Part shown: positions 48,635 through 54,472 of the stretch, in pieces
Layout of the letters: the number at the start of each line of letters is the position of its first letter
Numbering within the stretch: the stretch's first letter is position 1
Assembly (NCBI RefSeq): GCF_000336695.1
Contig: NZ_AOMC01000054.1
Span: 1 to 64,000 of the forward strand
Direction of reading: 5' to 3'
DNA length: 64,000 nucleotides
Source of the DNA: Halococcus morrhuae DSM 1307
GTDB taxonomy: Archaea > Halobacteriota > Halobacteria > Halobacteriales > Halococcaceae
Position numbers and translations under genes: made by a program
The notes under the pieces: generated by a model
Told to the model about the DNA's origin: nothing
Seen by the model: the letters and a program-made list of their open reading frames with translations, nothing else
The model's database searches: none

Positions 48635-50959
48635 ATGAACGTCGCCGAGGCGGTCCCCGAGTTCGCCGACGCGTTCGCCTTCGAGGAGTTCAACCGAATG
48701 CAGCGCGAGGCGCTGCCGGCGATTATGAATCGCGACGAGAACGTCGTCGCCAGCGCCCCCACCGCGAGCGGGAAGACCGCCCTCGCCGAACTCGCCATCT
48801 GCAAGTGTCTCGCCGCGGACGGCACGTCGCTGTTCATCGCGCCGCTGCGCGCGCTCACCAACGAGAAGGAAAGCGAGTGGGAGCGATTCGAGGATCTGGG
48901 CTACTCGGTCTACGTCGTCACTGGCGAGCGTGACCTGAACCCACGCCGTGCCGAGCGCGCCGACATTCTGGTGATGACGCCCGAGAAGGTGGACTCGGCC
49001 ACGCGAAAACACGACTCGCCCCGGTACGAGTTCATCACCGACGTGGGCTGCTGTGTCATCGACGAGGTCCACCTGCTCGATTCGGAAAACCGGGGGAGCG
49101 TGCTCGAAGTCACCATCTCCCGGCTCCGACGGCTCGCGGCCCCGCGCGTCGTCGCACTCTCGGCGACGATGCCCAATGTGAATGAAGTCGCCGACTGGCT
49201 CGACGCCGTTCCCGAAACGACCTTCGATTTCGGCCAGGAGTATCGACCCGTCGATCTCGAATCCGGCGTCCGGACCTACACACACGGCGAGAACGCCTTC
49301 GCCGACAAATACCGCCGACTGTATCGCGCGCTCGATCTGGCCGAGGAGCATATCCGTGAGGACGGCCAGGCGTTGGTCTTCGTCGCCTCCCGGCAGGACA
49401 CCGTTCGGGCTGCCGAGAAGGCCCGCGACGAACTCGCCTCGCGGGACGTCCCGATGGGTGCGCGCGGCGATTACGATTTTCATACCGAAACGCAGGTGCT
49501 CGAAAACCAGACGCTCCGGAAATCGGCGCTCGACGGCGTCGCCTTCCATCACGCCGGACTGTCGAAATCCGACAAGGACCACGTCGAGCAGTGGTTCCGT
49601 GAGGGGAAGATACAGCTCCTCTTTTCGACTTCGACGCTCGCGTGGGGTGTCAACCTGCCCGCACGGTGTGTCGTGATCCGTGACACTAAATACCACGACC
49701 CCCTGGAGGGCGAGGTCGACATGAGCCCGCTCGACGTGCTCCAGATGCTCGGGCGCGCGGGCCGGCCGGGCTACGACGACGCGGGTTACGCCTACGTGGT
49801 CTGTGACGGCAGCGACGCCGAGAAATACCGAAAACTGCTCCGCGACGGGACGGAGATCAACTCCCATCTCACGGCCGATCTCGACACACATCTCAACGCC
49901 GAGATCGCGATGGGCACCATCGACGACGTGCCCGACGTGATGGAGTGGCTCGAAACGACGTTCGCGTTCGTCCGTGCCCGCAGTGCCGACGAGGGTGCGG
50001 TCGCGGCGCTCAGGGAACGCGTCCGTGAAGCGCTCTCGACGCTCGACGATCGGGGGTTCGTCGCCATCGAGGGCGACACCGTCTCGGCCACCCCGCTCGG
50101 CACGCTCGCGTCGGCGTACTACCTCAGACTGCCGACCGCCCACCGCTTTCACGACCTCGCCGGCACCGACCCGACGACGAGCGCCCTCCTCGATGCGGTC
50201 GCTCGAAGCGCGGAGTTCGACAGCGTGAACGCCCGCCGCGCCGAGCGCGACGCCATCGAGAGCGTGCTCGATGGCCACGGCGATCTCGATCCAGGCAGAC
50301 GAAAGGTGCTGGCCATTCTCGCGTCGAGCACGCGCGCGGCGACGCCGAGCGAGCTCCAGAGCGACGCGTGGGTCATCCGCCAGAACGCCGTGCGCCTGCT
50401 CGCCGCGCTGCGGGCCTTCCTCGATCGCTTCGGCTCGGAGTGGGAGGCCAATCGCGCGCGTCGCGCGGCCGCGCGTGTCGAGAACGGGGTGGGCGAGGAG
50501 TCGGTCGCGCTCACCGCCATCGACGGCGTCGGCCCGGGCAGAGCGAGCAAACTCGCCGGCGAGGGGATCGAAACGCCCGCCGCCGTCGTCGAATCGGGTG
50601 TCGAGGAGCTCGTCGCCGTCGGTCTCACGGAGGGCGTCGCCGAGCGGGTCGTCGAGAGTGCACACGACCTTCCCGTACTATCGATCGATTGGGGTTCGTT
50701 CCCCGAACGGATCGCGCGCGGCGAGAACGAACTGTGCGAGGTGACGATCGAGAACGACGGTGACGGCGCGCGCGCCGGGATCCGCGTCTCGGTCAACGAC
50801 ACCGAGATGACGGCGACGAGTTCGTTTTTGGGATCGGAGACCGTGCCGGCCCCGGTCTTCGGCGGTGAGCCGGACACGCTCAAGTTTACCGTCGAAATCG
50901 TCTTCCCGGATCTGCCGCTGGCACCGATTACCGAGACGAGAACCGTCTGGGTCGACTGA
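48635..50959 (+). CDS. hel308: ATP-dependent DNA helicase Hel308
   Basis: A 774-residue superfamily 2 helicase. Q-motif FNRMQREAL, Walker A APTASGKT (41-48), DEVH box (143-146), SAT, and motif VI QMLGRAGRPGYD are present. A ratchet/winged-helix part and a helix-hairpin-helix (AIDGVGPGRASKLAGEGIE, about 628-660) follow. Hel308 unwinds lagging strands at stalled forks. Residues about 690-774 are an extra beta-rich extension (VTIENDGDGARAG) not typical of characterised archaeal Hel308. The ATG at 48635 starts MNVAEAVPEFADAFAFEEF. Confidence 0.94.
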   Translation: MNVAEAVPEFADAFAFEEFNRMQREALPAIMNRDENVVASAPTASGKTALAELAICKCLAADGTSLFIAPLRALTNEKESEWERFEDLGYSVYVVTGERDLNPRRAERADILVMTPEKVDSATRKHDSPRYEFITDVGCCVIDEVHLLDSENRGSVLEVTISRLRRLAAPRVVALSATMPNVNEVADWLDAVPETTFDFGQEYRPVDLESGVRTYTHGENAFADKYRRLYRALDLAEEHIREDGQALVFVASRQDTVRAAEKARDELASRDVPMGARGDYDFHTETQVLENQTLRKSALDGVAFHHAGLSKSDKDHVEQWFREGKIQLLFSTSTLAWGVNLPARCVVIRDTKYHDPLEGEVDMSPLDVLQMLGRAGRPGYDDAGYAYVVCDGSDAEKYRKLLRDGTEINSHLTADLDTHLNAEIAMGTIDDVPDVMEWLETTFAFVRARSADEGAVAALRERVREALSTLDDRGFVAIEGDTVSATPLGTLASAYYLRLPTAHRFHDLAGTDPTTSALLDAVARSAEFDSVNARRAERDAIESVLDGHGDLDPGRRKVLAILASSTRAATPSELQSDAWVIRQNAVRLLAALRAFLDRFGSEWEANRARRAAARVENGVGEESVALTAIDGVGPGRASKLAGEGIETPAAVVESGVEELVAVGLTEGVAERVVESAHDLPVLSIDWGSFPERIARGENELCEVTIENDGDGARAGIRVSVNDTEMTATSSFLGSETVPAPVFGGEPDTLKFTVEIVFPDLPLAPITETRTVWVD

Positions 50960-51017: not shown

Positions 51018-51746
51018 ATGGATGCCATCCGGGTCTTCGCCGGCGACTGCACCATCACCGAGGACGACGAGCGCGAACAGCGCGGCGACGTCGTTGTGGT
51101 GATCAAACCCGACGACACCGTGCTGGTCCACGATCGTGACGGCTACCAGCCAGCGGCGTGGCTCACCCGTCCCGAGACGCTCAGCTACGAGGGGACGAGC
51201 GGCGGGACGTTCTCGCTGACCGCCACCGATGGCGAGTCATCTCTCCACGTCGTCACCAACGAGGAGCACGGAATCGCGCGCTATCCTGCCTCCGCCGCCG
51301 GCGCTCCCGTGGGCGACTGCCCCGACTGCGAGGGCGCGCTCGTCCGCACGAAGGGTGCGGTGACGTGTCTCGACTGTGAGGTGCGCTACGGGCTGCCGGC
51401 GGGCGCGGACGTGCTCGATCGGGCCTGTCGCGACTGCGGGCTGCCGACGATGGTCGCCGAGCGCGGGCGCGCGTTCACGCTCTGCATCGACCGCGAGTGC
51501 GAGTCACTCGACGACCGAGTGAACGAAGCGTTCGATCACGAGTGGGGCTGTCCGGACTGCGACGGCGATCTCCGCGTCATCCGCAACGGTCAACTCCTCG
51601 CCGGCTGCGAGAACTATCCCGACTGTGAGACCGCGTTTTCGATCCCGTCCGGAACCGTCGACGGCGATTGTGAGTGTGGGCTGCCGGCGTTCGATACGAG
51701 TAGTGGACGACGCTGTCTCGACGCGACCTGTGAGCGCGCTGGCTGA
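51018..51746 (+). CDS. NucS N-terminal-like domain fused to topoisomerase-type zinc ribbons
   Basis: A 242-residue protein. The N-terminus (MDAIRVFAGDCTITEDD, then GDVVVVIKPDDTVLVHDR and GYQPAAWL) resembles the dimerisation/DNA-binding domain of the mismatch nuclease NucS/EndoMS. The nuclease domain is absent. The rest holds three cysteine-rich units (CPDCEGALV..CLDC at about 95-115, CRDCGLPTM..CIDREC about 135-155, CPDCDGDLRV..CENYPDCETAF) like topoisomerase I C4 zinc ribbons. It is probably a DNA-binding accessory factor. It lies between hel308 and endA. Confidence 0.75.
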   Translation: MDAIRVFAGDCTITEDDEREQRGDVVVVIKPDDTVLVHDRDGYQPAAWLTRPETLSYEGTSGGTFSLTATDGESSLHVVTNEEHGIARYPASAAGAPVGDCPDCEGALVRTKGAVTCLDCEVRYGLPAGADVLDRACRDCGLPTMVAERGRAFTLCIDRECESLDDRVNEAFDHEWGCPDCDGDLRVIRNGQLLAGCENYPDCETAFSIPSGTVDGDCECGLPAFDTSSGRRCLDATCERAG

Positions 51747-51818: not shown

Positions 51819-52844
51819 ATGGAAGGCACGCTCGACGGCGGCGTCGTCCGGGTCGGCGGCGACGCGCGCCAGCGGTTCTACGACTCCAGTGGCTACGGTC
51901 GGCCCGACGGGGCGGGCGTCGTGCTCGCGCCGGTCGAGGCCGCCCACCTGCTCTTTCGCGACGATCTCGACGCGGTCGACGGGATGGATCTCGGGAAATT
52001 TCTCGCCGCGACCGACTGCGTGGTCCGCTTTCTGGTCTACAAGGACTTCCGCGAGCGTGGCTTCTACCTCTCGCCCGCGCGCGAGGGCTGGGTGGACGCC
52101 GACGATACACGAGCGGGTGCGGACCTCGTGGTCTACCCGCAGGGCAACGGGCCGTGGGACGACGAAATCGCCTACCGCGTGCGCGTCGTCGGCGAGCGCG
52201 CCGCAGTGTCGGCGAGCGATCTCGGGAGCGTGGTGCTCGCCGTCGTCGACGAGGAGAGCGAGATCACCTATCTCGATACCTCACGCCCCGAAATGGTGGG
52301 ACACACCGACTACGACCACCCGACCGGCATCGCCGCCGACCTGCTGGAGGATCGAACCGTGCTCTGGAATCCTCCGAAGGATCTCTACGAGCGGGCGTTC
52401 TACGGCCAGCGACTCGCCGGGCGTGGGGCCGAGGGTGGTCCGCTCCAGCTCTCGCTGGTCGAGACGGCCTTCCTCGCCCGAGAGGGAGTGCTGGACCTCG
52501 ACGGTGGAGCCGAAACGGTCGTCGAGCGCGGGCGAGCGGTCGAGGGCGAGCGGTTCGACCGTCGGCTGGCGGTCTACGCGACGCTCCGCTCCGAGGGACT
52601 CGTCCCCAAAACCGGGTTCAAGTTCGGCGCGGACTTCCGGACGTACGCGGACGTCGAGTCGGTCGAGAACCTCGGTCATTCGGAGTTCCTGGTGCGCGTG
52701 CTTCCCGCCGAATACGCCTTCGGTCCACGCGAGCTCTCACTCGACGTGCGGCTCGCCGGCGGGGTCCACAAGCGAATGGCTTTTGCGCTGACCGACACGA
52801 ACGGTGACATCGACTGGCTCGCCGTCGAGCGAATCACACCATGA
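51819..52844 (+). CDS. endA: tRNA-splicing endonuclease
   Basis: A 341-residue archaeal endonuclease of the duplicated, homodimeric (alpha2) form: residues 1-160 are a non-catalytic copy, and 170-341 the catalytic copy with triad Tyr276, His287 and Lys318. It cuts bulge-helix-bulge introns. Haloarchaeal tRNA-Trp and tRNA-Met genes carry such introns and the same nuclease processes the rRNA stems seen near 61.2 and 62.9 kb. The stop overlaps the trpS ATG by 4 bases. Confidence 0.94.
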   Translation: MEGTLDGGVVRVGGDARQRFYDSSGYGRPDGAGVVLAPVEAAHLLFRDDLDAVDGMDLGKFLAATDCVVRFLVYKDFRERGFYLSPAREGWVDADDTRAGADLVVYPQGNGPWDDEIAYRVRVVGERAAVSASDLGSVVLAVVDEESEITYLDTSRPEMVGHTDYDHPTGIAADLLEDRTVLWNPPKDLYERAFYGQRLAGRGAEGGPLQLSLVETAFLAREGVLDLDGGAETVVERGRAVEGERFDRRLAVYATLRSEGLVPKTGFKFGADFRTYADVESVENLGHSEFLVRVLPAEYAFGPRELSLDVRLAGGVHKRMAFALTDTNGDIDWLAVERITP

Positions 52845-54472
52845 CCGATCCACAGCCCACGGACGACCGACGAGCGCCGGACCAGCTACCCCGAACGGAT
52901 GGTGGCACAGCGACTGGAGCCGACGAGACGACGCTCGACCCGTGGGGATCGTCAACTGTTGCCGACTACCGCAAGCTCTTCGAGGAGTTCGGCATCGAGG
53001 AGTTCGACGACGTGCTCCCCGACGTGCCGAGCCCCCACTACCTGATGCGCCGCGGCGTCATCTTCGGCCATCGAGGGTACGATCGCGTCGCGCGCGCGAT
53101 GGCGAACGACGAGGAGTTCGCCGTGCTCTCGGGCTGGATGCCGACCGGCGATCCACACATCGGCCACAAGCTCGTCATCGACGAGATCGTCTGGCATCAA
53201 CAGCAGGGTGGCGACGCCTACGCGCTGATCGCCGACATGGAGGCCCACAGCGCCCGCGGGCTGTCCTGGGACGAGATCGCCCGCCACTCCCGGGAGTACC
53301 TGCTGAGTCTCATCGCGCTCGGGTTCGATCCCGAGGAAGGCGAGATCTATCGCCAATCGGACAACCGCCCGCTCCAGGATCTCGCCTTCGAGCTCGGCGC
53401 GCACGTCAACTTCTCTGAAATGCAGGCGCTCTACGGCTTCGACGGCGGGACCAACGTCTCGCACATGCAGAGCGTCGTCACCCAGATGGCGGACATCCTC
53501 TACCCACAGATCGACGAACCGAAACCCACGGTGATCCCGGTGGGGCCGGATCAGGACCCCCACGTCAGGCTCTCACGCGACCTCGCGGCCAGCATGCGCT
53601 ATTTCAAGGTCAGCGAAGCGTACGCGAGCTTCGAGACCGACAGCGAGGAGCGCGCGCTCATCGGCGAGGCGTACGACGCGCTCTCCGAGAGTACTGATGA
53701 TCCGGTTCGGTGCGATGAGGCTGCTGATTGGCTTTCTCCGGATATGACTCTCCTCTCGGACTACGGTACCAGTACTGGCGAAAACATCCTTGAACAGGCA
53801 GAGGACGAGGTCATCGAGAGCGCGGTCGAGAAACTCCGCGCCGCCGGCAAGGAACCGCTCCGCCCGCGAACCAGGTTCCTCGATCGCACCGCGACCGACG
53901 ACGCCTTCGAGGCACTCATCGAGGCAATCGAGGGTGAAAAGCGCGTCTACGAGGGTCACATCGACAGTTTCGAACTCTCGCGGGAGGACGCCGAATCGCT
54001 CGCGCGCGAGGTCGAACTCGATCACGGTGGCTACGGGTTCGTCGCCCCCTCCTCGATCTATCACCGGTTCATGACTGGCCTCACTGGTGGGAAGATGAGC
54101 TCCTCGGTGCCGGCGAGCCACATCAGCCTGCTCGACGACCCTGAGGAAGGCTACGAGAAAGTGAAATCAGCGACCACGGGTGGGCGCGAGACGGCCGAAA
54201 AACAGCGCGAACTCGGCGGTCGAGCCGACGAGTGTCCGGTCTACGAACTCTACAACTACCTGCTCGCGGCGGACGACGACGAGTTCGCGATCCGCGTCTA
54301 CGAGGAGTGCACGAACGGCGAGCGCCTCTGTGGGGGCTGTAAGGAGCAGGCTGCGGAGCTGATGCGCGAGTTCCTCGAAGACCATCAGGAAAAACGCGAG
54401 GAAGCGAAGGAAGTGCTGGACGGTCTCGACATCGATCTCGGCTTCGGTGCCGAAACCGAAGCGGCGAACTGA
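52841..54472 (+). CDS. trpS: Tryptophanyl-tRNA synthetase
   Basis: A 543-residue class I synthetase. HIGH is PHIGHKL, KMSKS is GGKMSSS. An acidic N-terminal extension (about 35 residues) and a haloarchaeal insertion are seen. Residues 284-311 are encoded by codons unlike the rest (AGT, ACT, GCT, CTT, TCT) and lie between two copies of AGTACTG exactly 81 bases apart. Co-location with endA is logical: haloarchaeal tRNA-Trp needs splicing. The ATG overlaps the endA stop. Confidence 0.95.
   Translation: MTDPQPTDDRRAPDQLPRTDGGTATGADETTLDPWGSSTVADYRKLFEEFGIEEFDDVLPDVPSPHYLMRRGVIFGHRGYDRVARAMANDEEFAVLSGWMPTGDPHIGHKLVIDEIVWHQQQGGDAYALIADMEAHSARGLSWDEIARHSREYLLSLIALGFDPEEGEIYRQSDNRPLQDLAFELGAHVNFSEMQALYGFDGGTNVSHMQSVVTQMADILYPQIDEPKPTVIPVGPDQDPHVRLSRDLAASMRYFKVSEAYASFETDSEERALIGEAYDALSESTDDPVRCDEAADWLSPDMTLLSDYGTSTGENILEQAEDEVIESAVEKLRAAGKEPLRPRTRFLDRTATDDAFEALIEAIEGEKRVYEGHIDSFELSREDAESLAREVELDHGGYGFVAPSSIYHRFMTGLTGGKMSSSVPASHISLLDDPEEGYEKVKSATTGGRETAEKQRELGGRADECPVYELYNYLLAADDDEFAIRVYEECTNGERLCGGCKEQAAELMREFLEDHQEKREEAKEVLDGLDIDLGFGAETEAAN

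What the first reader, a model, noticed from the sequence alone, without database searches (positions are those of the whole stretch)
51018..51746. NucS-like DNA-binding domain joined to three zinc ribbons, without a nuclease
The N-terminal 60-80 residues look like the NucS/EndoMS domain while the C-terminal part, normally a RecB-like nuclease, is replaced by topoisomerase-type C4 ribbons. It sits between hel308 and endA-trpS, suggesting a DNA or RNA maintenance role. A nuclease-less relative could act as a loader, inhibitor or sensor for mismatches.
Basis: partly seen in the sequence, partly recalled or inferred. Interest (0 to 1): 0.6.

Follow-up and report, generated by a model that had tools for sequence, protein, structure and literature searches.

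The report
Zinc-ribbon partner of archaeal ASCC3-like helicase
A protein found in nearly all haloarchaea combines the DNA-binding end of the repair enzyme NucS with four zinc ribbons but no cutting part, and because relatives carry each half welded onto the neighbouring helicase, it is most likely a detached accessory of that helicase rather than a mismatch-repair protein.

Summary
The ORF (51018-51746, 242 aa) is real. Its N-terminal half is a NucS/EndoMS-type PH-like domain: hhalign 98% probability to NucS, and the five Foldseek PDB hits below E=1e-3 are all NucS/EndoMS chains. There is no nuclease. The C-terminal half has four C4 zinc ribbons, not three. The family is core: about 378 of 392 haloarchaeal genomes.

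The decisive finding is outside the coordinates. The upstream "hel308" is not Hel308. It is a single-cassette Brr2/ASCC3/Slh1-type helicase, and the genome's true Hel308 is elsewhere. In one other archaeal lineage the helicase orthologue carries the same four ribbons fused to its C-terminus. In another it carries the NucS-like domain plus HRDC. So both halves of this protein occur covalently attached to the same helicase. In an 81-genome sample the protein never occurs without the helicase. It persists in 9 of 11 genomes that lack NucS, which argues against a NucS loader, inhibitor or mismatch sensor. Most NucS mismatch-pocket residues are lost; the tryptophan is kept.

Best reading: a detached nucleic-acid-binding accessory subunit of the neighbouring ASCC3-like helicase, working like (not homologous to) TRIP4 on ASCC3. 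Physical interaction and substrate (DNA or RNA) are untested.

The parts
51018..51746 (+). the protein itself, 242 aa (NucS_N-like domain plus four C4 zinc ribbons)
   Evidence: ORF, orthologue alignment, Pfam, AlphaFold2/Foldseek
51027..51278 (+). N-terminal PH-like NucS_N domain, about residues 4-87
   Evidence: Pfam NucS_N 20-87; hhalign to NucS E=7e-14 and to helicase-fused domains E=1.7e-18; Foldseek top five EndoMS/NucS
51318..51377 (+). zinc ribbon 1 (C101, C104, C117, C120)
   Evidence: 63-66 of 68 orthologues keep each Cys
51426..51500 (+). zinc ribbon 2 (C137, C140, C156, C161)
   Evidence: all four Cys invariant in 68 orthologues
51549..51626 (+). zinc ribbon 3, the one most like topoisomerase I (C178, C181, C197, C203)
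   Evidence: Pfam Zn_ribbon_Top1 178-210, E=5.4e-7; Cys invariant
51669..51731 (+). zinc ribbon 4 (C218, C220, C233, C238)
   Evidence: 67-68 of 68 orthologues keep each Cys
48635..50959 (+). adjacent helicase, 774 aa, single-cassette Brr2/ASCC3/Slh1 type (DEAD, Helicase_C, winged helix, Sec63/Brl, HhH, Ig-like); its orthologues elsewhere carry the ribbons or the NucS_N-like domain fused at the C-terminus
51819..52844 (+). endA, tRNA intron endonuclease, conserved downstream neighbour
   Evidence: Pfam; synteny
52841..54472 (+). trpS, class I aminoacyl-tRNA synthetase (Trp/Tyr type), conserved downstream neighbour
   Evidence: Pfam; synteny

Best explanation
The protein is a detached, non-catalytic accessory subunit of the helicase encoded just upstream, a single-cassette archaeal member of the Brr2/ASCC3/Slh1 group. 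The NucS-type PH-like domain and the ribbon array are nucleic-acid-binding and/or docking modules. They would sit near the Sec63-HhH-Ig-like end of the helicase (where they are fused in relatives), hold the single strand or junction, and improve loading or unwinding. This would be analogous to TRIP4, which docks on ASCC3 by a zinc finger and stimulates it by placing a nucleic-acid-binding domain next to a helicase cassette. Shown here: domain composition, lack of nuclease, fusions of both halves to orthologues of this helicase, phyletic dependence, gene proximity. Inferred: physical interaction, binding to single-stranded or branched DNA, stimulation of the helicase.
For: (1) Fusions: in lineage f12 (7 of 7 genomes) all four ribbons match collinearly at the C-terminus of the helicase orthologue (116-126 bits against 48 bits for the genome's topoisomerase I). 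In two f19 genomes the orthologue carries a NucS_N-like domain plus HRDC, closer to this protein's N-domain (E=1.7e-18) than NucS is (7e-14). (2) The helicases that carry the fusions and the window's helicase form one clade, 99/99, apart from Hel308, 100/98. (3) In an 81-genome haloarchaeal sample all 79 genomes with the protein have the helicase; one has the helicase only, one has neither. Of 14 genomes without the protein, 8 keep the helicase and 4-5 lack both. (4) Same-strand helicase within about 5 kb upstream in 14 of 20 regions from different genera, and within 70 bp in several; 58 bp in the window. (5) All appended modules are of DNA-enzyme type (NucS_N, topoisomerase I-like ribbons, RecQ-type HRDC). 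(6) TRIP4-ASCC3 precedent (PMC10076317).
Against: No interaction or expression data. Eight genomes keep the helicase and have lost the protein, so it is not strictly required. The gene is closer and more constantly linked to endA (18 of 20 regions) than to the helicase (14 of 20). The two halves were found fused in different lineages; no helicase carrying both halves was found. The helicase model is poor over the ATPase core (mean pLDDT 60), so docking could not be modelled.
Confidence: 0.66

Rival explanations
1. It serves RNA metabolism: with an ASCC3/Slh1/Brr2-type helicase and endA-trpS next door, protein and helicase act on tRNA or on stalled ribosomes rather than on DNA.
For: The helicase's best PDB relatives include SLH1 (ribosome splitting) and Brr2 (splicing). 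endA is next to the helicase even in lineage f12. endA adjacency is the most constant one. Zinc ribbons can bind RNA.
Against: The modules are of DNA-enzyme type (NucS_N, topoisomerase I-like ribbons; RecQ-type HRDC in the fused form). In f12 the other side of the helicase is Bax1(DUF790)-XPB, a DNA repair pair. The two helicase-bearing f19 loci show no endA within the few kb held.
Confidence: 0.22
2. It modulates NucS/EndoMS: a nuclease-less paralogue that binds mismatches or flaps as sensor, loader or inhibitor.
For: Homologous N-domain; the window's genome also encodes a full NucS.
Against: Retained in 9 of 11 genomes without NucS. Asn76, Arg72 and Arg98 equivalents lost, Tyr41 equivalent variable. 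Not next to nucS in the window's genome (different contig).
Confidence: 0.06
3. A free-standing single-strand-binding protein or topoisomerase I accessory whose proximity to the helicase is incidental.
For: Ribbons resemble those of topoisomerase I; the gene sits away from the helicase in some genera.
Against: The ribbon array matches the helicase-fused array far better than topoisomerase I (116-126 against 48 bits); phyletic dependence on the helicase.
Confidence: 0.06

Closest known systems
NucS/EndoMS (PF21003 NucS_N plus PF01939 NucS_C)
   Same: homologous N-terminal PH-like domain, KPD and VH motifs and one base-stacking Trp kept
   Different: no nuclease domain; most mismatch-pocket residues lost; four zinc ribbons instead; occurs without NucS
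Archaeal topoisomerase I C-terminal ribbons (PF01396 Zn_ribbon_Top1)
   Same: C4 ribbon sequence type; ribbon 3 matches at E=5.4e-7, just below the curated cut-off
   Different: no topoisomerase domains; its own four-ribbon array shared with a helicase fusion
TRIP4/ASC-1 with ASCC3 (and Rqt4 with Slh1)
   Same: zinc-containing partner plus a nucleic-acid-binding domain, serving an ASCC3-type helicase (functional analogy only)
   Different: no sequence homology detected; different zinc module; no ASCH domain
Hel308-type helicases
   Different: it fails the Hel308 family cut-offs, carries Sec63/Brl and Ig-like domains, and is closer to Brr2/ASCC3/Slh1; the genome has a separate true Hel308

Membership tests
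NucS/EndoMS | N-terminal PH-like NucS_N domain | tested here: met
NucS/EndoMS | C-terminal RecB-like PD-(D/E)XK nuclease domain (NucS_C) | tested here: not met
   no NucS_C match in the protein; the only one in the genome is the separate NucS on contig C120
NucS/EndoMS | mismatch-pocket and backbone residues (Tyr41, Arg44, Arg72, Asn76, Trp77, Arg98 of EndoMS) | tested here: not met
   only Trp77 invariant (W48); Asn76 to Ala, Arg72 to Tyr, no Arg98 equivalent, Tyr41 variable
Topoisomerase IA | C4 ribbon of Zn_ribbon_Top1 type | tested here: inconclusive
   29.7 bits against a cut-off of 32
Topoisomerase IA | topoisomerase catalytic domains | tested here: not met
   none in the Pfam scan
Hel308 (neighbour helicase 48635-50959) | score over the Hel308 family cut-offs and Pfam Helicase_dom4_arc | tested here: not met
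   389 against 887 bits, no Helicase_dom4_arc; the genome's true Hel308 meets both
Brr2/ASCC3/Slh1 helicases (neighbour) | helicase core followed by winged helix, Sec63/Brl, HhH and Ig-like domains; closer to Brr2/ASCC3 than to Hel308 | tested here: met
   (winged-helix match 25.6 bits, just under its cut-off of 27)
Brr2/ASCC3/Slh1 helicases (neighbour) | two tandem helicase cassettes | tested here: not met
   774 aa, one cassette
TRIP4/ASC-1 (analogy) | TRIP4-type zinc finger and ASCH domain | tested here: not met
   no such Pfam match
TRIP4/ASC-1 (analogy) | binds and stimulates an ASCC3-type helicase | not testable with these tools
   needs biochemistry

The most novel reading that the evidence does not exclude
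Haloarchaea and two further archaeal lineages carry a prokaryotic counterpart of the eukaryotic ASCC3-TRIP4 motor module: a single-cassette ASCC3/Brr2/Slh1-type helicase with a zinc-containing nucleic-acid-binding partner that has been repeatedly fused to it or split from it. It would represent an ancestral form of the dual-cassette eukaryotic helicases.
Probability: 0.2. Interest if true: 0.8.

Novelty: new variant of a known kind. Interest (0 to 1): 0.6.

Why it matters
It gives a testable function to a protein present in nearly every haloarchaeon. It shows the NucS recognition domain reused outside mismatch repair. It corrects the identity of a helicase read as hel308 to a Brr2/ASCC3/Slh1-type enzyme. 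If the complex is real, genetically tractable haloarchaea offer a simple one-cassette model for how accessory zinc proteins steer ASCC3-type helicases between DNA repair and RNA or ribosome work.

Tried and rejected
Papers on a NucS-zinc ribbon protein or on a haloarchaeal Hel308b: none found in the held library. Defence role: the protein has no PADLOC match and the helicase only helicase-core matches; near-universal presence also speaks against it. A conserved gene between helicase and protein: several families have a recurrent ORF there, but on the opposite strand, so it was not taken as a component. Hidden or degraded copies in genomes without the protein: a sensitive profile scan of the helicase surroundings found none in eight genomes. 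Full helicase structure: poor core confidence, so no docking inference was drawn; only its C-terminal region (pLDDT about 85) and the Foldseek ranking were used. Stand-alone NucS_N+HRDC proteins in two f19 genomes without the helicase lie beside unrelated genes.

Full report
What is there. The window lies in a Halococcus-like genome (93% protein identity to Halococcus thailandensis). Bases 51018-51746 encode an intact 242-aa protein, preceded by a helicase (58 bp gap) and followed by endA and trpS on the same strand. The N-terminal part matches Pfam NucS_N marginally, and the match becomes firm with an alignment of 68 orthologues (hhalign 98.1%, E=7e-14 against NucS). AlphaFold2 on eight sequences gives mean pLDDT 82.5, and the only five PDB hits under E=1e-3 are EndoMS/NucS chains, with other PH-like domains behind them. 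The C-terminal part has four C4 ribbons rather than three; their cysteines are invariant or nearly so. There is no nuclease domain.

How widespread. With an eight-sequence profile, about 378 of 392 sampled haloarchaeal genomes have the protein; 389 pass E=1e-5, but some of those are only topoisomerase I ribbons or NucS at E near 1e-6 to 1e-9. Outside haloarchaea no free-standing full-length relative was found in the phylum sample.

The neighbour is not Hel308. The upstream 774-aa helicase scores 389 bits against a curated cut-off of 887 for the halophile Hel308 family, whereas another gene of the genome scores 1159. It has Sec63/Brl, HhH and an Ig-like end. By sequence its best solved relatives are Brr2, SLH1 and ASCC3 (E 1e-142 to 1e-145; those scores sum two cassettes, but yeast Brr2 with a single matched stretch still gives 326 bits), against 248 bits for Hel308. 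The genome's true Hel308 shows the reverse ranking: Hel308 510 bits, ASCC3 250 bits. Foldseek of the helicase model lists Brr2 first, and the 50 best hits contain no Hel308, though the model is weak over the ATPase core.

The decisive link. In lineage f12, orthologues of this helicase (978 aa) end in a four-ribbon array collinear with the protein's ribbons from the VGxC start to the RCLDxxC end, at 116-126 bits; the genome's own topoisomerase I scores 48 bits with the same profile. That N-domain is closer to the window protein's (E=1.7e-18) than NucS is (7e-14). The fused and unfused helicases form one clade, separate from Hel308. So each half of the protein exists covalently joined to the same helicase, in two different lineages.

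Phyletic pattern. In the 81 haloarchaea common, all 79 genomes with the protein have the helicase, one has only the helicase and one has neither. Among the 14 genomes that lack the protein, eight keep the helicase, with no degraded copy near it; four lack both, one incomplete genome also shows none, and one is broken at a contig edge. The protein thus depends on the helicase and not the reverse, as expected of an accessory. Against NucS the pattern is different: NucS is missing from 11 of 145 genomes and the protein is present in nine of those.

Gene order. In 20 regions from different genera the helicase is upstream on the same strand within about 5 kb in 14, sometimes within 70 bp, and endA follows in 18. 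In lineage f12 endA lies beside the fused helicase and Bax1(DUF790)-XPB on the other side.

Mechanism. EndoMS flips mismatched bases between Tyr41 and Trp77 and contacts them through Asn76 and Arg98 (PMC6829318). Here only the Trp is constant (W48). The Asn position is Ala in 64 of 68, the Arg72 position Tyr in 67 of 68, and there is no Arg98 equivalent. A new conserved patch, GYQPxAWLTR, replaces the NucS sequence. The domain therefore probably still stacks on a base or single strand but is unlikely to read mismatches as NucS does. In humans, TRIP4 docks on ASCC3 by a zinc finger and stimulates it by placing a nucleic-acid-binding domain at a cassette (PMC10076317). I propose an analogous arrangement for this protein and its helicase. 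Physical contact, substrate and stimulation are inferred, not shown.

DNA or RNA. NucS_N, topoisomerase-like ribbons, RecQ-type HRDC and the Bax1-XPB neighbours favour DNA. endA-trpS and the kinship of the helicase to Slh1 and Brr2 leave an RNA or ribosome role open (about 0.2).

Verdict. New variant of known kinds of parts, with a new and testable functional link.

Noticed in passing
   Followed up: yes
L079:2280-3089, L083:1713-2555: Two f19 genomes that lack this helicase have a stand-alone NucS_N-like plus HRDC protein, beside unrelated genes.
   Followed up: partly
L095:832-3637: In genome G175 the gene is split by an insertion that encodes a TnpB/OrfB_IS605-type protein.
   Followed up: partly
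L092:1861-2499, L093:1901-2521: Genus g66 has shortened forms: NucS_N-like domain, a ribbon 1 without cysteines, and one further ribbon only; ribbons 3-4 are gone.
   Followed up: no
L091:5157-5471: G136 has a second, truncated N-terminal copy of the gene about 3 kb upstream of the intact one.
   Followed up: no
L084:1413-2138, L085:1271-2113: Some haloarchaea carry two or three NucS genes of clearly different type, while NucS is missing from others, among them two congeners of the window's organism (G044, G073).
   Followed up: partly
L105, L106, L108, L110, L114, L115, L119 between helicase and the protein: A recurrent antisense ORF of about 230 aa, HAD-phosphatase-like by eye, lies between helicase and protein in several families.
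   Followed up: no
L078:499-7548: In lineage f12 the fused helicase lies between endA and a Bax1(DUF790)-XPB pair.
   Followed up: partly
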